The translations under genes were made by a program, and so were the position numbers. From Bacteroidaceae bacterium (GTDB lineage Bacteria; Bacteroidota; Bacteroidia; Bacteroidales; Bacteroidaceae), in the NCBI GenBank assembly GCA_024401215.1, contig JAKSLL010000009.1:1-64000 (forward strand): a stretch of 64,000 nucleotides of DNA. Reading direction: 5' to 3'. A model generated the notes under the pieces. The model was not told where the DNA came from and searched no databases. It worked only from the letters and a program-made list of their open reading frames with translations. Of the stretch, positions 28,979 to 37,093 are shown piece after piece. How positions within the stretch are numbered: position 1 is the first letter of the stretch; each line of letters starts with the position of its first letter.

Positions 28979-29009
28979 ATTGTAATAATATAATAAAACT
29001 TTACATTTG
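28979..29009 (+). promoter_or_regulatory. Bacteroidota-type promoter of the structured RNA
   Basis: ATTG at 28979-28982, a 19-base spacer and TACATTTG at 29002-29009 fit the -33/-7 consensus. Transcription would start near 29013-29016, just before the first stem of the RNA. Confidence 0.75.
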
Positions 29010-29013
29010 CAAA

Positions 29014-29338
29014 GTATAATCTTAGCTGAAAGCCCTTTACGGGGCAGAGGGCTGGGATGGTACATACATAAATAGGCGTATCTGTAAACGCTTTGGTTTT
29101 GACGTGTTGGAACTTCGCAACTTCAAACTGTTAGTCAAAAACAAAGCAACGGGGACGTCTCATGGATGTTTATATACTATATAAACGTATTACGTGTAAG
29201 GTTTTTTCTTATGCGTGATATGTCTATTTATATAACATTATCGTGGGGCTTTCAGCGTTGCTCGTTTCGACTAACATGGCAATGCGAAGGCCTCAACACG
29301 TGGAGCGAGTAAACAAGACTGGCTCCACGCTTTTTTAT
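29014..29338 (+). ncRNA. Structured non-coding RNA of unknown class, about 320 nt
   Basis: The stretch has its own promoter and terminator and no coding frame. Stems seen: GCTGAAAGCCC (29025-29035) with GGGCTTTCAGC (29246-29256), perfect 11 bp closing a 210-base domain; inside it, a 13-bp stem with one mismatch (29091-29103 with 29134-29146), a perfect 9-bp stem GTTTATATA/TATATAAAC (29168-29186) and ACGTGTAAG/CTTATGCGT with two G-U pairs (29192-29216). The first arm can instead fold locally (AGCCCT with AGGGCT, 29031-29053), so two states are possible. A terminator hairpin (29299-29329) with TTTTTT ends it. I see no signature of RNase P, tmRNA or SRP RNA. Confidence 0.75.
29299..29336 (+). 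terminator. Intrinsic terminator of the structured RNA
   Basis: CGTGGAGC and GCTCCACG form a perfect 8-bp stem with a 15-base loop, followed by CTTTTTT. Confidence 0.85.
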
Positions 29339-29387
29339 GTAGTTATACCTTGTAATGTGTAATAATACTATATAAAAAGAAGATGTT

Positions 29388-29810
29388 ATGGCAGAAAAAA
29401 CATTCAATGGCCAGATAAAGACCGCAGGGAACGATGAAATTACTCAGTTATCGAGTGATGGACATGAGGATGCGATAGCTAGCACTAAGTCCAGTGAAAT
29501 CTCCACAAATATAGGAGGTTACAATACAAAAGCATTTGCTAATATTATGATTAACAGACAATCGACCAATGTTGATGATTTTGTGGAAGTTCTGAATACA
29601 ATTAGTCCAGAAATGGGAGGCGTAACAAACCTTGGTGTTTTCTGTGATATAAATAGTGTGGAGCAGAGCGTAGCAGTTCTTTCTGATGTTGAAGAACAAT
29701 TTATTCATGTAGAAACCGAACGAGGCGAACAGCCGTACGATAAGTTGTTCAATGATGGAAGTTCTATTGAACCATACGATTTCAGTTTTAATCACTTGTT
29801 GAACAATTAA
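29388..29810 (+). CDS. Unknown acidic protein, first gene of the island
   Basis: 140 residues from ATG 29388, preceded by AGAAG at a reasonable distance. No signal peptide, membrane segment, Cys cluster or recognised domain. The protein is acidic and rich in Ser, Thr and Asn, with a stretch resembling a helical assembly segment (NVDDFVEVLNTISPEMGGV). It begins 52 bases after the RNA terminator and is followed by the zinc-finger gene after 9 bases, which suggests one operon. A weak promoter-like TATACCTTG lies at 29344-29352. Role unknown; by context it belongs to the SPFH/TerB cluster. Confidence 0.7.
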   Translation: MAEKTFNGQIKTAGNDEITQLSSDGHEDAIASTKSSEISTNIGGYNTKAFANIMINRQSTNVDDFVEVLNTISPEMGGVTNLGVFCDINSVEQSVAVLSDVEEQFIHVETERGEQPYDKLFNDGSSIEPYDFSFNHLLNN

Positions 29811-29819
29811 AGAAATGGA

Positions 29820-31895
29820 ATGGATATGAGTACAAATATGAAAATCATCAAGGAGCACACTGGGGTACTGCTTGGTTCTGTTGAGACTTGTGAATGTGAT
29901 CCTCTGATGGATTGCCGTGAATGTCATGGTACTGGCACATGTCAAGAATGTCATGGGCAAGGTGAAGTGAATTGTCACACTTGTCATGGTAATGGAAAAT
30001 GTACCGATTGTAATGGTAGAGGGCGTTGGCGCTGTAATGAATGTGGAGGATCCGGAAATTGCAGAAGATGTCATGGAACAGGAGATGTCCAGTGCTCAAA
30101 TTGCCATGGACGAGGCACAGTACAATACAAAGATATAGAAGGTCATACAGGATGGAAAGATTGTCCAAAGTGTGGCGGTTCTGGCAATACACCATGTCCG
30201 GAATGTCGCTCAGGCATGCAGAGTGCAGCAAAATTTCTTGATGAAGTAACTTTTGGAGCTGGTAGAACCTATGGTCATGGTTCTGGAAAATGTTCTAAAT
30301 GTGATGGCACTGGTGAAATAGTTTGTAAAACTTGTAACGGAACTGGCGATTGTAAAACCTGTCATGGATCTGGTCAGTTGACATGTGAACATTGTCATGG
30401 TTCTGGCGATTGTCCACGTTGTGATCATGGTAAAGTGACATGCGAAAGATGTGATGGCTCTGGCAATTACCAGACCTTTATCCGTCGCAAAACAACACTA
30501 TATGCTAAAGATTGGCGGTTCTCTGGTTCAACACCATACAAGGATATTGTAGGAGCATCGTATGGTTCGATTTTGCATGATGGTCCTGTTAAAACATGGA
30601 AAGATGCTACGCAAGTTGAATCAGATGTTGTTGATAAAACAAATAAAGAATGTGAGCAATCTTTGGGTGAAGAAAAAGAACTTTACGAGGAGTTTCTTGA
30701 GAGCTATAGAGATCAACGAGAACTTGTGACTCCAAATAATGACTCAGATAAACCTTACGCAAGGAATCTCAAGGTTCAGAAAGTGCCTGTAACAAAAATC
30801 AACTACTCTCTTAATGGTGAGAATTACGAAGTTCTTGTTGTCGGTGACAATCATATTGTAGCAGTCAAATCAATTCCAACAGTCATCAAGGGATTTGAGT
30901 TGACCAAATGGCAGAAGATCAAACTCGCTATGACAGAGAAGAGCCGCTTGAAGGCCTTTGCTCGTCTTGCTGCATACATATTCCAGTGTGATGGAAAAAG
31001 CCAGGAGGAATCTGCTGTGCTTGACTCGATGATATCTGCACTCAAATTGAATGCGTCTAAAGAATCTGCATTTAGGAAGGAATTGGATGGCTTGAATTCC
31101 AATCTTCCGTATGACAAGGTTCGTAAGATGATCAAACCTCTTCTTAAGTCAAAGAAAACAATAACGTTTACTTGGCAATGCATGGCTGTTGACAAAATGG
31201 TTACACCAGATGAGGAAAAGCTATTCAGTAATATTGTGTCAGAGTACAAGATTGATTCTAAAGAAGTGGAGCATCTCAAGGGATTGGCACAAAAGTTTGC
31301 AAAGCTTAAGAAGGATCAGTTTGCTATAGAATATGCGGACCTGTCAGATGAGTTTGCAGCGATACGCAAAAAGGTTTGGAAGACAATTCTCTTCTCTATA
31401 ATGGGTGTAGTAGTTGTCGCTTCTATAGTAGTATATATGTTAATGCCAAAAACACCACATAATAGCTCTTCAGACTATAACTCATTAGAAGAAATTTACG
31501 ACTCAATAGAAAAGGTAAAGTCGGAAGCCATTTTAGAAATAAATGGTATCGGGAAAAATGAGAAGTTATCTGATGATGTAGAATCAAATGAATTGGAAAC
31601 TGAAGAAGTTTTTGATAATATTGTGTCTGATAATCAAGAAATCAATGGTAATTATCCAGAAGCCAGTGAACGATTGCTGACAGATTCAGATCTTGCATCA
31701 ATGGACAAAACAAGTCTTAGGTATATGCGTAATGAAATTTATGCACGCCATGGATATATCTTCAAAAATCAAGAGTTACGGGAGCATTTTGAACATGAGT
31801 TCTGGTATGAAGGATTGTATTCTGATGTGTCATCAATGCTCACGGATGTTGAAAAAAAGAATGTAGCACTTATTCAGAAATACGAGAACAAATAA
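29820..31895 (+). CDS. CXXCXGXG zinc-finger / TerB-like / YARHG membrane protein
   Basis: 691 residues. Residues about 32-220 hold thirteen canonical DnaJ-type CXXCXGXG motifs (such as CRECHGTG, CHTCHGNG, CSNCHGRG, CEHCHGSG, CERCDGSG) and two degenerate ones (CPECRSG, CPRCDHG). DnaJ itself has four and a J domain; no J domain is present here. Residues about 361-500 form a helical TerB-like domain (AFARLAAYIFQCDGKSQEE; VDKMVTPDEEKLF). One transmembrane helix follows (ILFSIMGVVVVASIVVYML, about 520-542), then a linker and a YARHG domain (SLRYMRNEIYARHGYIF). The likely topology is zinc fingers and TerB in the cytosol, YARHG outside. Zinc binding and a chaperone-like or sensing role are inferred. 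Confidence 0.8.
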   Translation: MDMSTNMKIIKEHTGVLLGSVETCECDPLMDCRECHGTGTCQECHGQGEVNCHTCHGNGKCTDCNGRGRWRCNECGGSGNCRRCHGTGDVQCSNCHGRGTVQYKDIEGHTGWKDCPKCGGSGNTPCPECRSGMQSAAKFLDEVTFGAGRTYGHGSGKCSKCDGTGEIVCKTCNGTGDCKTCHGSGQLTCEHCHGSGDCPRCDHGKVTCERCDGSGNYQTFIRRKTTLYAKDWRFSGSTPYKDIVGASYGSILHDGPVKTWKDATQVESDVVDKTNKECEQSLGEEKELYEEFLESYRDQRELVTPNNDSDKPYARNLKVQKVPVTKINYSLNGENYEVLVVGDNHIVAVKSIPTVIKGFELTKWQKIKLAMTEKSRLKAFARLAAYIFQCDGKSQEESAVLDSMISALKLNASKESAFRKELDGLNSNLPYDKVRKMIKPLLKSKKTITFTWQCMAVDKMVTPDEEKLFSNIVSEYKIDSKEVEHLKGLAQKFAKLKKDQFAIEYADLSDEFAAIRKKVWKTILFSIMGVVVVASIVVYMLMPKTPHNSSSDYNSLEEIYDSIEKVKSEAILEINGIGKNEKLSDDVESNELETEEVFDNIVSDNQEINGNYPEASERLLTDSDLASMDKTSLRYMRNEIYARHGYIFKNQELREHFEHEFWYEGLYSDVSSMLTDVEKKNVALIQKYENK

Positions 31896-31904
31896 ACTAT
31901 AATT

Positions 31905-32963
31905 ATGTATTCCAAAGAATTAGAAGAACTCATTGAGAATGTCCTCGCAGATGGTGTTGTGACAGAACAGGAACGTGCGGTGCTTCGCAAGCGTGCTCAG
32001 GCATGTGGCGAAGATCCTGACGAAGTTATGATTGTAGTTGAAGGTCGTCTTGCAAAGATGAAGAAAGAGTCAGCACCAACGACACCAACTTCTGAGAAGC
32101 GTGGCAACATTGTTAAGTGCCCAAGTTGTGGTGCGCCTATTGAAGCAGGTGCAATAAAGTGTGTTGAGTGCGGTTATGTCTTTACAAATGTGAAAGCGAA
32201 TAATTCTGCTGAAAGATTTGCGAAAGAGTTGGCAGTACTACTTGACAAACATAAGGATGCTTATACTGACACAAAGAAGTCTGACAGGAATAGCGCTATC
32301 TGTGAATTTATAATGAGTTTTCCTGTCCCAACAAGTAAAGAGGATATGTTGGAGTTTCTCGCAAGTCTTGACGCAAAGCGCAGAATCAACTCAGATTTTC
32401 AGAATGCCTATGATGCAAAATACAAAGAGTGTGCGACGAAGGCAAAGATTCTGTTTGCAGGCGACAAACAGATTGAAGCCCTTTTGAGCCAAACTGAGAA
32501 ATTCTCCGTATCTAAGCTTACTAAGAAGCAGATAGTCATATTTACTGTTGTTATAATTGGGCTTATCTTTTCAATATACACTTTTATTGGCAAAAGCAAT
32601 AACGACGAGCGTGGGAAACAGGCTGTTGCGATTGCTGAAGCTCAATGTGATAGTCTATGTAGTCTTATCGAGCAACTTCCTATGCCTACAGAAACAAACT
32701 ATAAGGATGTTGAATATAGTTTGCTAAAGATTACATGGAAAGATCCTTCTTATAGTTCAGATTGGTATGATGATTATGAAAGGGCTGTAGATAATTGTAA
32801 AGACAAATTTCTTGCCAAGAAGAGAGCAATTGCTAGTCAAATATATTCTATATATAAAATTGTTTATCCTGGAGAAAATTCTAATGGGCACTGGGATGGC
32901 ACAGAAGCAAACGTTCATGCACCGCAGGAAATTTATTATCCAAAAGGTTATATCGAAAACTGA
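31905..32963 (+). CDS. TerB-like / zinc-ribbon membrane protein
   Basis: 352 residues, 9 bases after the previous gene. The N-terminus (ELIENVLADGVVTEQERAVL, residues 4-50) is a short TerB-like helical segment, followed by a zinc ribbon (CPSCGAPIEAGAIKCVECGY, about 73-92), a helical region, one transmembrane helix (IVIFTVVIIGLIFSIYTFIG, about 208-229) and an extracytoplasmic tail. The frame stops at 32963, but another frame stays open to 33096 and reads well on from it (IEN joined to DVNSMNQIASNGKEKRPI), so the intact protein may be about 45 residues longer and this copy frameshifted near 32950-32965. The domains echo those of the preceding gene. Confidence 0.75.
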   Translation: MYSKELEELIENVLADGVVTEQERAVLRKRAQACGEDPDEVMIVVEGRLAKMKKESAPTTPTSEKRGNIVKCPSCGAPIEAGAIKCVECGYVFTNVKANNSAERFAKELAVLLDKHKDAYTDTKKSDRNSAICEFIMSFPVPTSKEDMLEFLASLDAKRRINSDFQNAYDAKYKECATKAKILFAGDKQIEALLSQTEKFSVSKLTKKQIVIFTVVIIGLIFSIYTFIGKSNNDERGKQAVAIAEAQCDSLCSLIEQLPMPTETNYKDVEYSLLKITWKDPSYSSDWYDDYERAVDNCKDKFLAKKRAIASQIYSIYKIVYPGENSNGHWDGTEANVHAPQEIYYPKGYIEN

Positions 32964-33096
32964 TGTTAATAGTATGAACCAAATTGCTTCGAATGGGAAG
33001 GAAAAGAGACCTATTATCTTGTTTGAAGAGGTTGGAGGTACATATTCTCTTATAGGGAAATATGATTTCAAAGAAGATGCAAACCAACCAACATAG
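32964..33096 (+). pseudogene. Possible frameshifted C-terminus of the zinc-ribbon protein
   Basis: After the stop at 32963 the +1 frame continues for about 45 codons with a plausible protein sequence (IILFEEVGGTYSLIGKYDF). It could instead be a 40-residue ORF from ATG 32973. No ribosome-binding site is obvious. I favour a one-base deletion in the upstream gene. Confidence 0.4.
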
Positions 33097-33169
33097 GTTA
33101 AGTCTTCAATATCAAAAGAGCAATAAAAGACTGCTTTGGAGTATATAATTAATTGTCAAAAAAAGTATC

Positions 33170-34744
33170 ATGGGACTATTCGGTAATATATTTGGAAAAG
33201 GTAACAATGGTGGCATAATGGACACTATTCGTTGCGACGAGAAAGATTTTCTTATTTGGAAGTGGCGACCAGCAGGTCAGGATGCCAATTCTACAAGTAG
33301 AGAGAATGCTATTCGTATGGGCAGTAGCATCAGTGTGCGCCCAGGTCAAGCTGCGGTATTCCTGTATCAGCAGAAAGAAGGTGAATATGACGTGATTAAA
33401 GGCCCTTACAATAGTATCGTAAAAACAGACAACCTTCCTGTACTTGCGTCCATTGTTGGTCTTGCATACGATGGAGGAACACCATTCCAAGCAGAGTTGT
33501 ATTACTTCAACCTCGCAAAGGGAATGGAGATTCTGTTTACCATTCCTTATTTTCGCGTCGTTCCTGCTGAACCGGAATATAAGGCTTACTGCATTGAGGT
33601 TGCGGTAAAAGGTTCGCTAGTATTCGAGGTGTCTTCTCAAAAGGAATACATTAAGTATCTTTTTGAGGCATGGGGAGGCAACGATACCACTCTTGCGGAA
33701 CTTGAAAGCAAGGTGAAGAGCCTTCTCACTCAGGAAGTGAAGCAGATCGTGTCAAATGCGCCAAAAGATACAGGCATCTTCGTGATGCATTTCAATTCGC
33801 TTATTGGTGAGATGGGATCATATATCCTCAACCGCATTCAGAACAAGATAGCTAACCGCTTCGGCATATTGGCAACTGATGTCACAATCTCGGACATACG
33901 CTATGATGAGAATAGCGAAGGCTACCAAAACCTTAAGCGTATCACAGAGACTCAGACTCATCTCTTCAATCTTGAAAATGAAAAGAATGCTCTTCTTTCA
34001 TTTGAGATACAAAGAGAAACTATGCGCACAGATGCTGACATCAGAAATGACAGTGCACGTAGAATGGCAGATATGCAGCTTAACCATCAAGAGGATATGA
34101 TGGCTCGAACGCGTGAGGAGTCCCAATTTGCTCAACGCCAGCAGACAATGGCAGCGGCTCAGCAGGCTGCTATGATGAACGAGGCTGCAGCATACCGTGC
34201 AAATACTGCTTCAGACGTGGCAGCTCATCGCTCAAATCTTGCTTCCGAACAGAATTATTTGGGTGCGCATCAGGTTAATGTTCAGGCAGATGTAATGAAG
34301 ACAGGTCTTAATAATATGGGGCAAATGGGCAGTATGAATCTCGGTGGCGGAGAAGGACACATGAACCCTGCAGGTATGATGGCAGGCATGATGATGGGAA
34401 CAGCTGTTGCTGGACAAATGGGCAACATGATGAACAACATGGGTAGCGCATTGAACCAGAATATGCCTCAGCAGACACCTCCACCAATGCAAGGTCAGAC
34501 ACCACCGCCTATCCCACAACCACAAGTCACAACATATTATGTTTCTGTCAATGGTCAGCAGATGGGACCTTTTGATGTAAACACCCTCATGCAATATGTT
34601 CAAGTCGGACAGATAAATGCCAATACTATGGCTTGGTGCAACGGTATGCCTTCATGGACACCTATGGGACAGATTCCAGCATTAGCTATGATGTTCCAAT
34701 CTTCTTCACAAGGCGGTTGTCCACCTCCTCTTCCTAACGTATAA
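33170..34744 (+). CDS. SPFH (band 7) domain protein with C-terminal GYF_2 domain
   Basis: 524 residues. Residues about 20-265 form an SPFH/band-7 domain of the 'virion core protein' (YdjI-like) type: FLIWKWRP, ISVRPGQAAVFLYQ, AELYYFNLAKGMEILF, and the helical end RFGILATDVTISDIRYDE. A coiled coil (about 270-345, rich in Glu, Gln and Ala) follows, then a Met/Gly/Asn-rich low-complexity linker (NPAGMMAGMMMGTAV) and PPP motifs. The C-terminus is a GYF_2 (DUF4339) domain: YYVSVNGQQMGPFDVNTL...MAWCNGMPSWTPM. SPFH proteins oligomerise on membranes as scaffolds. In Bacillus the related YdjI works with zinc-ribbon membrane partners; this cluster has a similar composition. Confidence 0.88.
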   Translation: MGLFGNIFGKGNNGGIMDTIRCDEKDFLIWKWRPAGQDANSTSRENAIRMGSSISVRPGQAAVFLYQQKEGEYDVIKGPYNSIVKTDNLPVLASIVGLAYDGGTPFQAELYYFNLAKGMEILFTIPYFRVVPAEPEYKAYCIEVAVKGSLVFEVSSQKEYIKYLFEAWGGNDTTLAELESKVKSLLTQEVKQIVSNAPKDTGIFVMHFNSLIGEMGSYILNRIQNKIANRFGILATDVTISDIRYDENSEGYQNLKRITETQTHLFNLENEKNALLSFEIQRETMRTDADIRNDSARRMADMQLNHQEDMMARTREESQFAQRQQTMAAAQQAAMMNEAAAYRANTASDVAAHRSNLASEQNYLGAHQVNVQADVMKTGLNNMGQMGSMNLGGGEGHMNPAGMMAGMMMGTAVAGQMGNMMNNMGSALNQNMPQQTPPPMQGQTPPPIPQPQVTTYYVSVNGQQMGPFDVNTLMQYVQVGQINANTMAWCNGMPSWTPMGQIPALAMMFQSSSQGGCPPPLPNV

Positions 34745-34756
34745 AAAGATGTCATT

Positions 34757-35143
34757 ATGAATGTAATGGATTTCGATGCATTGGTTTATAAAAATCAAGG
34801 TTTCAACACAATGGACAAGCTTGCAGACTCAAACGTTGTGAATCAAATGTCACAGCAATCATTGCAAGCAATACAAACAATGCAGCAGATGCCGACAGCT
34901 CAGGGATTCGTCCCTGAACATGTCACATTGCCAGTGTTCCAACGTCAAACTCAGCAACAACAGCAGAAACAAGCTAATGATGTACAGATATTTATAAGTT
35001 TGAACGGCACGCAAAAAGGTCCTTTTACGTTAGAACAACTCAAAGGACTTGTAATTGCAGAGGTTGTTGACGATGATACAATGGCATGGCGTGCTGGCTT
35101 AGATAATTGGACAACTTTAAAAACATGTTTATCAACCCTCTGA
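34757..35143 (+). CDS. Small GYF_2 domain protein
   Basis: 128 residues from ATG 34757, 12 bases after the SPFH gene. The N-terminal half is Gln/Met-rich (QTMQQM, QQQQKQ) and probably disordered or coiled. The C-terminal half is a GYF_2 (DUF4339) domain: IFISLNGTQKGPFTLEQLKG and DDDTMAWRAGLDNWTTL. The domain matches the tails of the SPFH protein and of the next gene, so all three may share one partner or bind each other. No signal peptide or membrane segment. Confidence 0.82.
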   Translation: MNVMDFDALVYKNQGFNTMDKLADSNVVNQMSQQSLQAIQTMQQMPTAQGFVPEHVTLPVFQRQTQQQQQKQANDVQIFISLNGTQKGPFTLEQLKGLVIAEVVDDDTMAWRAGLDNWTTLKTCLSTL

Positions 35144-35148
35144 TTATT

Positions 35149-35478
35149 ATGGCAGAAGATAGTAGTATGTTTGAAAAAATGATGGAAATGGGTATGAGCA
35201 TGACTGTCATGAGCCAGATTCCACAGATGATGAATGGAATGATGCCAAATGTACAAAAGCCTGTGGCGTCACCTCCTCCATTAAACGAGAACCAAAACGA
35301 GGAAACCTATTTGGCTATTGATGGTCGTCAGGCAGGACCATTTTCTAATAGTGAATTGGTGGCACTTATTAACAAGGGTGTGCTTACAGAGAATACTCTA
35401 GTATGGAAAGCAAATATGTCACAATGGACTGTTGCTAAAAATGTCCCTCAAGTCAACAAATTGCTTTTATTAAATTGA
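35149..35478 (+). CDS. Small GYF_2 domain protein
   Basis: 109 residues; start ATG 35149 (MAEDSSMFEKMMEMG) lies 5 bases after the previous stop, and an earlier in-frame ATG at 35107 would overlap that gene. The N-terminus is Met-rich (MGMSMTVMSQIPQMMNGMMP), resembling the linker of the SPFH protein. The C-terminal half is a GYF_2 domain: YLAIDGRQAGPFSNSELVA and NTLVWKANMSQWTVA. It is the last intact gene of the island operon; the insertion sequence begins 91 bases later. Likely a tandem duplicate of its neighbour that has diverged. Confidence 0.8.
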   Translation: MAEDSSMFEKMMEMGMSMTVMSQIPQMMNGMMPNVQKPVASPPPLNENQNEETYLAIDGRQAGPFSNSELVALINKGVLTENTLVWKANMSQWTVAKNVPQVNKLLLLN

Positions 35479-35709: not shown

Positions 35710-37093
35710 ATGGCAAAGGTACAACAAATTTCTGAAATAACACCAAGTTTTGCGTTCACAGAGTTCGATTTTTACAAAGATTATGAAGAATCTTTTAAAA
35801 AGCGAGATTGGACGCATTCATGCCCTCCTTCCGCTGCATGAAATGGCTGTCAGGTTCGGACTTGTAGATTCGCATCCGCATAAGAAAGCCGGTCGCAAAT
35901 CTTACTTCAGTCCGGAAGGCAAGGTGGCGCTCATGTTCCTCAAGTCGTACACAGGATTGTCTGCCCCAAAGCTTATGGAGCAACTCAACGCAAACATCCA
36001 CTATCAAATATTCTGCGGTATCCGAATCAATTCAAGGAATCCTCTGACCAACTATAAGCTCATTGATGACATCATCCTAAAGTTGTCCAACCGTCTGAAG
36101 ATACAGAATCAGCAGGAAGCACTGGCAGAAGCATGGAAGCCCTACATGAAGAATCTTGATACGCTCTATACCGATGCTACATGTTACGAGAGTGCCATGC
36201 GTTACCCCACCGATGCAAAGCTGCTGTGGGAATGTATAGAAAAGGTGTATCCGATGATGTGCGAGGCAAGCCGTGAGCTCGGCATTCACCGCATGAGGAC
36301 GAAATACCTTGATGTGTCACGTGACAACATGGCTTATGTGAAGCAACGCCGTCACACCAAGCAAAGAACTCGCAAGATGATCTGTCGCCTGTTGGATTTG
36401 CTGGGGAAGATACTCGCAGAGCTGAGAAGGCTTGACAGGGAGAATCCTTGTGCAGGACTCTTCTCTGACAAGCAACTTGCAGAAATAGAGACGATAACGA
36501 AGATATACCGTCAGCAGCGCAACCACCAGAAGAGTGGCAACGCAAAGGAAAGCATCCCTAATCGTATCGTAAGCGTCAACAAGCCATACATCCGTCCAAT
36601 CGTAAGAGGAAAGGAGATAAAGAAGGTCGAGTTTGGAGCCAAGTGCAACAACATCCTGATTGATGGCATGTCGTTCATCGAGAAGCTATCCTTCAACGCC
36701 TTCAGCGAGGGCACACGCCTTGTACATTGCGTAAAGCTTGCAGAGAAACTCTTTGGAGAGAAGATTGCCAAACTGGGCGGTGACTGCAGCTATTCCGGTA
36801 ATGACAACCGCACCTTCTGCAGTGACGAGAACATTGTGACATCGTTCTCACAAAAAGGGAAAAAGCGGGAAGCGACAGTTTCTGTCAGCATGGTCAGGAA
36901 AGAACTTGCCCGTGTACGCGCCACTGCAATGGAAGGATCCTTTGGAACACAGAAGGAGCATTACGGGCTCAAGCGGATTAACGGTCGAATCAAAAGAACG
37001 GAAATCCTGATTATCTTCTTCGGTATCCATACGGCTAATGCGGTGCAACTGGCAAGGAGAATTGCGAAGGCAGAACTCAGCCAGGCTGCCTAA
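35710..37093 (+). CDS. DDE transposase (IS5/IS1182-like), two frames
   Basis: The body lies in one frame (open from 35750, about 440 residues); its natural N-terminus lies in another (ATG 35710, MAKVQQISEITPSFAFTEFD). The frames join smoothly as DYEESFKK plus SEIGRIHALL near CTTTTAAAAAGCG (about 35792-35804), needing a +1 or -2 shift. This may be slippage on the A-run or an inactivating mutation. Catalytic regions seen are TLYTDATCYESAMRYP (first Asp), GGDCSYSGNDNR (second Asp) and AMEGSFGTQKEHYGLKRI (Glu). An N-terminal DUF772-like helical domain precedes them. Confidence 0.82.

What the first reader, a model, noticed from the sequence alone, without database searches (positions are those of the whole stretch)
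29010..29338. Stand-alone structured RNA of unrecognised class, with possible two-state fold
The stretch has a consensus promoter, no coding frame, at least four helices (one of 11 bp closing a 210-base domain, one with two G-U pairs, one 13-bp with a single mismatch) and an intrinsic terminator. The 5' arm can pair either with bases 29246-29256 or locally with 29048-29053, so a switch is possible. It stands directly before an accessory gene cluster. It does not show the signatures of RNase P, tmRNA, SRP RNA or a known riboswitch that I can recognise.
Basis: partly seen in the sequence, partly recalled or inferred. Interest (0 to 1): 0.75.

Follow-up and report, generated by a model that had tools for sequence, protein, structure and literature searches.

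The report
Multistate RNA switch before accessory genes
A 330-base RNA in gut bacteria, seen many times in this bacterial order but absent from the RNA family library searched, usually sits just before unrelated accessory genes and carries sets of competing folds, so it looks like a built-in switch for the gene behind it.

Summary
The structured RNA is real and is a family. It has a Bacteroidetes-type promoter, folds far better than shuffles (z -11.2) and matches no Rfam 15 family. Relatives occur across Bacteroidales (113 of 251 family genomes by blastn; 53 of 393 order genomes by a strict model search), five here, and in none of 344 other genomes sampled over the phylum. Covariation establishes two long-range helices, H1 and H2. 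Swap tests support further, mutually exclusive helices.

It is not stand-alone: in 109 of 119 loci the next gene is co-oriented, in 91 it starts within 150 nt. Past the terminator, 102 of 118 copies carry a small hairpin (D) whose loop matches the terminator arm, about 24 nt before the start codon, so read-through transcripts matter. The window copy lacks D.

Best reading: a cis-acting attenuator. An early hairpin (LH) holds strand S2. If S2 is freed, H1/H2 form and dismantle the terminator; if not, S3 pairs S4 and transcription stops. The switching is inferred; the signal is unknown. Some operons behind it encode defence or surface proteins.

The parts
29002..29009 (+). TACATTTG, Bacteroidetes -7 promoter box (TAnnTTTG, recalled consensus)
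   Evidence: such a box in 112 of 136 unique homologues against 10 by shuffling
29014..29337 (+). whole leader RNA up to the T tract; exact 5' and 3' ends inferred
29014..29063 (+). 5' variable hairpin; contains the 5' strand of P1
   Evidence: fold; swap test z -16.8
29025..29035 (+). P1 5' strand, pairs with 29246-29256 (crosses H1/H2, so a pseudoknot with them)
   Evidence: 82.9% of cells paired, 18 both-side changes against 7.7; z -7.4 (tight) and -5.4 (wide)
29075..29079 (+). P2 5' strand GGCGT: pairs with 29155-29159 or, alternatively, 29076-29079 with 29088-29091; weakly supported
   Evidence: pairs 29075-29159 and 29076-29091; z -3.0 and -4.4; no signal in the close set (+1.6 and -0.3)
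29090..29103 (+). S1: pairs with S2 (29134-29147) in the local hairpin LH
   Evidence: z -12.2 in 54 thinned divergent homologues; only -3.5 in the close set
29102..29118 (+). H1 5' strand, pairs with 29284-29301
   Evidence: swap z -42 (close set) and -32 (divergent set)
29129..29150 (+). H2 5' strand (S2 is 29134-29150), pairs with 29257-29276
   Evidence: swap z -34 and -26
29165..29238 (+). P4 (GATGT.. with ..ACATT) closing a hairpin whose tip varies in sequence and length
   Evidence: z -9.8 (P4) and -10.5 (tip); z -10.5 (P4)
29242..29249 (+). AT arm CGTGGGGC, pairs with the terminator 3' arm 29322-29329
   Evidence: 98.6% of cells paired on A3, but only one pair has changes on both sides; z -7.3; GU:AC 197:8
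29246..29256 (+). P1 3' strand, overlaps the AT arm
29257..29271 (+). S3 GTTGCTCGTTTCGAC by position: pairs with S2 (H2) or with S4; can also pair with 29276-29285
29284..29301 (+). H1 3' strand; its last three bases are also the first bases of terminator helix T
29299..29305 (+). terminator helix T 5' arm, pairs with 29323-29329
   Evidence: 84.9% of cells paired on A3; z -5.0
29305..29313 (+). S4, pairs with S3
   Evidence: 98.2% of cells paired over 195 homologues (seven pairs), GU 226 against AC 2; z -7.6
29317..29329 (+). terminator 3' arm GACTGGCTCCACG: alternative partners T, AT and, in most homologues, hairpin D
29330..29336 (+). CTTTTTT, T tract of the terminator-like hairpin
   Evidence: 174 of 193 homologues have 6 or more T in 9
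29337..29387 (+). spacer to the first gene; in most homologues it holds hairpin D, in this copy it does not (best duplex -4.7 kcal/mol)
29388..29810 (+). first gene behind the leader, 140 aa, no Pfam family
29820..31895 (+). second gene, 691 aa, YARHG domain; DnaJ-type cysteine repeats match below Pfam's cut-off
31905..35478 (+). rest of the cluster: zinc-ribbon protein, SPFH/Band_7 with GYF_2, two GYF_2 proteins

Best explanation
It is a cis-acting mRNA leader that controls the gene or operon behind it by switching between alternative folds, most likely by transcription attenuation. Supported by covariation or swap tests: strand S2 pairs with S1 (hairpin LH) or with S3 (helix H2); S3 pairs with S2 or with S4; the terminator 3' arm pairs with the AT arm, with T, or with the loop of hairpin D behind the T tract. 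Inferred logic: LH forms first during transcription. If LH persists, S3 is left for S4, and AT plus S3:S4 (or T) make a hairpin directly before the T tract, so transcription stops (OFF). If H1 and H2 form instead, H2 takes S3, H1 takes the first bases of T and P1 can take the AT arm, so the terminator is dismantled and the polymerase reads through (ON). In the read-through mRNA the D loop then holds the 3' arm about 24 nt before the start codon, which may also tune translation. A general cellular signal, small molecule or protein, probably stabilises one state; which one is not known.
For: Covariation among 136 unique homologues: scores up to 227 with sd 4.4; 14 of the 16 highest-scoring column pairs are standard pairs in 87% or more of rows (the other two are cross-pairs of neighbouring columns) and they form H1 and H2. 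H1+H2 on 40 sequences: 187 cells changed on both sides against 53 in shuffles; slid controls fall to 32-39% paired. Competing helices in 54 thinned divergent homologues: LH z -12.2, H2 core -5.1, S3:S4 -7.6, AT -7.3, T -5.0, against four controls of +1.1, +0.6, -1.8, -0.2. GU far exceeds AC in S3:S4 (226:2) and AT (197:8), so this strand acts as RNA. D loop with 3' arm: own -12.3 against swapped -10.1 (sd 0.16) and shuffled -8.2 kcal/mol over 193; z -11.7 in the 59 divergent; at -9 kcal/mol or better in 102 of 118 against 24.6 expected. D end to ATG: median 24 nt, quartiles 20-34, 141 loci. Context: 109 of 119 co-oriented, 91 of 119 within 150 nt, a TAnnTTTG box in the spacer of 2 of 91. Folding of growing transcripts of the window copy: LH, then P2, replaced by H2 and H1 once S3 is made.
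Against: No transcript, 3'-end or reporter data. The swap tests do not correct for relatedness, so small z values (P2, T, H2 core) could be partly descent. In the unguided scan of 195 sequences the pairs of LH, S3:S4, AT and T score 22-47, a range in which pairs of columns that do not pair also occur; their support rests mainly on the swap test and pair counts. In the close set LH has swap z -3.5 and P2 none, and on 40 sequences the covariation score of P2+LH+AT is reached by 51 of 500 shuffles, although cells changed on both sides (8 against 2.6) are not. P2 is paired in only 79.7% of cells. S3 has a further possible partner, 29276-29285 (z -4.3), that the model does not use. D is made after the T tract, so it cannot cause antitermination by itself. 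The window copy has no D. For the window copy P2+LH+AT is 16.9 and P2+LH+T 4.9 kcal/mol less stable than H1+H2; H1 (shortened)+H2+T is only 3.1 less stable, so T can coexist with most of H1. D matches its own arm only moderately better than arms of other copies of the same genome (strictly best in 16 of 30, p 0.013).
Confidence: 0.6

Rival explanations
1. Translation switch: the T tract is not mainly a terminator; the leader is transcribed through, and pairing of the D loop with the upstream arm, at a fairly fixed distance before the start codon, turns translation on or off, in the manner of the kissing-loop expression platform of cobalamin riboswitches (recalled).
For: D end to ATG has quartiles 20-34 nt in 141 loci although the genes are mostly unrelated; D pairing is the clearest cis contact across the T tract.
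Against: A G+C-rich arm followed by 6 or more T in 9 in 174 of 193 is what intrinsic terminators look like, and two helices that end there are conserved.
Confidence: 0.2
2. Stand-alone trans-acting RNA of about 325 nt that ends at the T tract and acts elsewhere; neighbouring genes are incidental.
For: Large pseudoknotted fold, own promoter box and terminator; several copies in many genomes; D fits foreign arms of the same genome nearly as well in many cases.
Against: 109 of 119 next genes co-oriented, 91 within 150 nt; D behind the terminator matches the arm with compensatory changes and keeps its distance to the start codon.
Confidence: 0.1
3. Processive antitermination element: the folded RNA stays on RNA polymerase and lets it read long acquired operons, like put or EAR RNAs (recalled).
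For: Genes behind it share no pathway and include defence operons.
Against: Competing helices around one terminator and the local D contact fit local attenuation better; 24 of 91 loci have a co-oriented run of one gene as far as the held sequence shows; no distal terminators were examined.
Confidence: 0.08
4. Single-stranded DNA or recombination element (attachment site for gene cassettes), the folds being DNA folds.
For: Mostly unrelated genes follow at a similar distance; in five loci a conserved cassette-like end begins right after the arm.
Against: GU pairs are tolerated more than AC mismatches on this strand in every helix counted and a promoter box is near the 5' end in 112 of 136; both point to RNA.
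Confidence: 0.02

Closest known systems
Riboswitches and leader attenuators with terminator / antiterminator / anti-antiterminator strands (recalled general class)
   Same: Promoter box, structured leader, competing strands, G+C arm and T tract, gene close behind
   Different: About 325 nt to the T tract, pseudoknotted, mostly unrelated genes behind it, plus a hairpin past the T tract that captures the terminator arm; no ligand known
Cobalamin riboswitches with kissing-loop expression platform (recalled)
   Same: A hairpin near the start codon pairs by its loop with an upstream domain
   Different: No Rfam match to cobalamin or any other family; a terminator-like hairpin lies between the two partners
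Bacteroidales-1 motif, RF01693 (listed in PMC2864571, passages seen)
   Same: Same bacterial order
   Different: No Rfam match at gathering score in the window or in 16 divergent relatives, and RF01693 is not among the matches at E up to 10 around the finding
UpxY / RfaH / LoaP leader-dependent antitermination (search listing and abstracts' beginnings; details recalled)
   Same: Leader elements that gate acquired operons
   Different: Those use a protein with a short element; here the whole leader is a large conserved fold; no protein partner was sought

Membership tests
Transcription-attenuating leader | Promoter upstream and co-oriented gene close downstream without its own promoter | tested here: met
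   TAnnTTTG in 112 of 136; 109 of 119 co-oriented, 91 of 119 within 150 nt, box in the spacer in 2 of 91; only this one promoter type was looked for
Transcription-attenuating leader | Intrinsic terminator between leader and gene | tested here: met
   arm plus 6 or more T in 9 in 174 of 193; by sequence only, termination not measured
Transcription-attenuating leader | Mutually exclusive helices, one of which blocks the terminator | tested here: met
   LH against H2, H2 against S3:S4, H1 against T, each with own-partner preference and pair counts; that one blocks termination is inferred
Transcription-attenuating leader | Termination efficiency changes with the fold | not testable with these tools
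   needs in-vitro transcription
Riboswitch | Direct binding of a ligand | not testable with these tools
   no ligand proposed; genes behind it show no shared pathway
Any Rfam 15 family | Score at or above gathering threshold | tested here: not met
   0 matches in the window and in 16 divergent loci; four matches at E 2.8-5.6 around the finding, all below gathering
Stand-alone sRNA | Independence from the neighbouring gene | tested here: not met
Processive antitermination RNA (put/EAR) | Acts on distant terminators through RNA polymerase | not tested
   no data

The most novel reading that the evidence does not exclude
An undescribed order-wide class of Bacteroidales leader RNA, often in several copies per genome, that reads one general signal and gates horizontally acquired operons (defence systems, surface proteins, stress modules) by a multi-strand switch with a post-terminator hairpin that locks read-through transcripts open.
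Probability: 0.45. Interest if true: 0.92.

Novelty: new variant of a known kind. Interest (0 to 1): 0.8.

Why it matters
A large RNA switch in common gut bacteria (records titled Segatella copri, Bacteroides, Phocaeicola, Parabacteroides and Prevotella carry it), often in several copies per genome and sometimes placed before defence or surface operons, would mean that many accessory genes in these bacteria answer to a shared RNA-read signal. The alternative folds are defined strand by strand, so the model can be tested directly. The class is absent from Rfam 15, and the family alignment would let genome annotation find its regulon.

Tried and rejected
Rfam at gathering score and, around the finding, at E up to 10: no family. 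Phage and plasmid records: no blastn match; two viral contigs by pattern. The 691-aa protein of the cluster has only partial matches in 4 phage records. A shared protein behind the RNA: rejected; among the nearest ORFs of 34 loci only four related pairs were found, and no Pfam family is in more than 5 of 89 first genes. A conserved upstream peptide: looked at by eye in the alignment and dropped, as start codons are not conserved; not tested further. A DNA-level element: disfavoured by GU over AC. Reading hairpin D as a Shine-Dalgarno signal: rejected by its distance of about 24 nt to the ATG. A trans partner for D: not excluded, own arm only moderately better. Literature: the searches listed nothing that describes this RNA as far as titles and starts of abstracts tell. 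I saw passages of PMC8040213 and PMC2864571 and the outline with abstract of PMC13370916; supplements could not be read, so a fragment of this RNA may be among the unnamed candidates of PMC8040213. Enrichment of defence genes was not measured against a control set. Only 88 of the 115 second and third genes listed were put into the alignment, and one search's own list was cut at a residue limit.

Full report
OBSERVATION. The stretch 29010-29338 is a real structured RNA. It folds at -128.5 kcal/mol against -77.7 for dinucleotide shuffles, z -11.2, 0 of 100 as good. A TACATTTG box at 29002-29009 fits the Bacteroidetes -7 consensus TAnnTTTG (recalled). No ORF of 80 aa or more overlaps it. Rfam 15 gives no match in the whole window at gathering score, and around the finding four matches at E 2.8 to 5.6, all below gathering.

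A FAMILY. Blastn finds seven matching pieces in the window's own genome; the 3'-module model R1 finds five copies at E 1e-5 or better, plus an antisense match at 0.012. That genome is 93.55% complete with 7.04% contamination, so a copy could be foreign. Blastn finds matches in 113 of 251 genomes of the family. R1, with strict filters and about ten candidates scored per genome, finds it in 53 of 393 genomes of the order, in 30 of 207 genera, up to eight copies in a genome. In a sample of 345 genomes over the phylum only the window's own genome has it; the other 344 include at least two of the same family, where it can be absent. A pattern scan of named genomes stopped at its limit with 119 stretches; the 80 titles shown are mainly Prevotella or Prevotellaceae, Segatella copri, Bacteroides, Bacteroidaceae, Phocaeicola, Parabacteroides, Muribaculaceae, Paludibacteraceae and Bacteroidales; one is titled 'uncultured Firmicutes' and one 'uncultured bacterium'. 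Two viral contigs carry it; phage and plasmid records do not by blastn. Sixteen divergent relatives also match no Rfam family at gathering score.

HELICES. nhmmer gave 225 matches; the 161 of 80 bits or more (one per locus) include 152 near full length and 136 after removing near-duplicates. An unguided covariation scan of these 136 puts H1 (29104-29109 with 29294-29299, and 29113-29114 with 29288-29289) and H2 (29129-29133 with 29272-29276) far above everything else: scores up to 227 with sd 4.4; of the 16 highest, 14 are standard pairs in 87% or more of rows and two are cross-pairs of neighbouring columns. With divergent sequences H1 extends to 29102-29103 with 29300-29301 and to 29118 with 29284. 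On 40 sequences H1+H2 have 96.0% of cells paired and 187 cells changed on both sides against 53 in shuffles; slid versions fall to 32-39% paired. P1 crosses H1/H2, so it is a pseudoknot with them. In the close set the swap test gives P1 -7.4, AT -7.9, T -8.7, LH -3.5, and no signal for P2 (+1.6), the GCGT hairpin (-0.3) or an ACGTC hairpin (-0.6).

COMPETING HELICES. I fetched 60 divergent homologues; one lacked enough upstream sequence and was left out, giving 195 aligned sequences. Column pairs of LH (29095-29142, score 47), T (29304-29324, 31), S3:S4 (29263-29307, 29; 29264-29306, 22) and AT (29246-29325, 27) then rise, but columns that do not pair also occur in that range, so the scan alone does not prove them. 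Of the 59 divergent rows I kept 54 below 80% identity and compared each strand with its own partner and with partners swapped between sequences: H1 z -32.1, H2 -26.2, H2 core -5.1, LH -12.2, S3:S4 -7.6, AT -7.3, T -5.0, P4 -10.5, S3 with 29276-29285 -4.3, P2 -3.0, GCGT hairpin -4.4; four control pairs gave +1.1, +0.6, -1.8 and -0.2. Over 195 sequences the paired percentages are H1 97.5, H2 92.0, LH 93.6, AT 95.5, T 91.7, S3:S4 98.2, P2 79.7; in the 59 divergent alone H2 is 79.0 and LH 85.0. GU outnumbers AC in each, most in S3:S4 (226:2) and AT (197:8), least in T (80:44). These helices exclude one another: S2 cannot pair S1 and S3 at once, nor S3 both S2 and S4, nor the arm both AT and T; H1's last bases are T's first. 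Caveats: the swap test ignores relatedness, and on 40 close sequences the covariation score of P2+LH+AT is reached by 51 of 500 shuffles, though cells changed on both sides (8 against 2.6) are not. On 70 3' modules AT has 98.6% and T 84.9% of cells paired.

BEHIND THE T TRACT. 174 of 193 homologues with a located arm have six or more T in the next nine bases. About 44 nt past the arm (median) lies a small hairpin D. In the close set 60 of 134 spacers carry its loop motif GG(N)AGYC against 3.9 in mononucleotide shuffles. The loop matches the terminator 3' arm: own duplex -12.3, swapped -10.1 (sd 0.16), shuffled -8.2 kcal/mol over 193; close set z -8.7; in the 59 divergent -11.9 against -9.1, z -11.7, with different but matching letters in different loci. 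D at -9 kcal/mol or better occurs in 102 of 118 loci against 24.6 expected. The distance from D to the first ATG of an ORF of 60 aa or more has median 24, quartiles 20-34, in 141 loci; loci with less than 400 nt downstream were dropped before that count. So transcripts that contain both the arm and D appear to be under selection. The window copy lacks D (best -4.7 kcal/mol); the other four copies in its genome have one, at -14.8, -14.2, -9.1 and -9.5. D fits its own arm better than other arms of its genome, but only moderately: strictly best in 16 of 30, Wilcoxon p 0.013.

CONTEXT. Of the 136 unique loci, 119 had 700 nt or more downstream and a called ORF. In these the first ORF downstream is co-oriented in 109 and starts within 150 nt in 91 (median over the co-oriented, 72 nt); the nearest upstream ORF is co-oriented in 69, opposite in 38 and not called in 12; a TAnnTTTG box lies in the spacer in 2 of 91. 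The neighbouring ORFs are mostly unrelated: four related pairs among the nearest ORFs of 34 loci. Among 89 first genes (the near ones, near-identical ones removed) the commonest Pfam families reach only five members: BspA-type LRR and SNF2 helicases; three have DUF4007. Five of the 89 match many PADLOC helicase models, best DISARM DrmD (5.5e-206) but also BrxH, DpdE and others, so the system type is not settled. Among 88 second and third genes (of 115 listed) there are two members each for SspC, SspD, type IIG restriction enzyme and BrxC models, which may overlap in the same proteins, and two with BACON domains. I did not test enrichment against a control. In the window the operon holds a 140-aa protein without Pfam match, a YARHG protein with DnaJ-type cysteine repeats, a zinc-ribbon, an SPFH-GYF_2 and two GYF_2 proteins.

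MECHANISM (inferred). Folding growing lengths of the window RNA gives LH at 29150, LH with P2 at 29170 and 29240, part of each at 29262, H2 at 29280 and H2 with H1 from 29300. If LH is held, S3 is free for S4 and, with AT or T, forms a hairpin directly before the T tract: OFF. If H1/H2 form, H2 removes S3, H1 removes the first bases of T and P1 can cover the AT arm: ON, and D then holds the arm in the mRNA. Computed energies for the window copy: H1+H2 -127.6, H1 (short)+H2+T -124.5, P2+LH+T -122.7, P2+LH+AT -110.7. So ON is the default on energy alone, and a signal that stabilises LH would turn it off; the opposite sign is not excluded. Which states terminate, the ligand and the role of D are not shown.

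NOVELTY. Nothing in Rfam 15 matches at gathering score, and eight literature searches listed no description, judged by titles and starts of abstracts. Human-microbiome candidates of 27-219 bp (PMC8040213, passages) could include fragments; the supplements were not readable. The kind, a cis-acting leader with competing helices, is known; the class, its size, its mostly unrelated downstream genes and the post-terminator partner are new as far as I could test.

Noticed in passing
L052, L071, L136, L186, L197 (right after the terminator 3' arm): The T tract is replaced by a conserved end of about 100 nt (GAACC...TGATACCATAAAGTTCCC), and D is missing in those that were tested; in three of the five (L052, L071, L197) the genes behind it run towards the RNA and include an XRE-like HTH protein of 95-106 aa (named by eye). 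This looks like a cassette that inserts at the RNA's 3' end.
   Followed up: partly
window 29388-35478: An operon of YARHG / DnaJ-type cysteine repeat, zinc ribbon, SPFH/Band_7 and GYF_2 proteins, followed by a transposase gene at 35750-37093; it resembles stress or conflict modules by domain content (recalled), function unknown.
   Followed up: no
L196 and L197: Two IMG/VR viral contigs carry the RNA. In the 13.6 kb held of L197 the neighbours look by eye like a cassette of HTH, ATPase and other accessory genes; the rest of that 50-kb contig was not read.
   Followed up: partly
window 29172-29228 and homologues: The tip of P4 varies strongly in sequence and length among homologues, yet its two halves still prefer each other in the swap test (z -10.5), as does its closing stem.
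   Followed up: no
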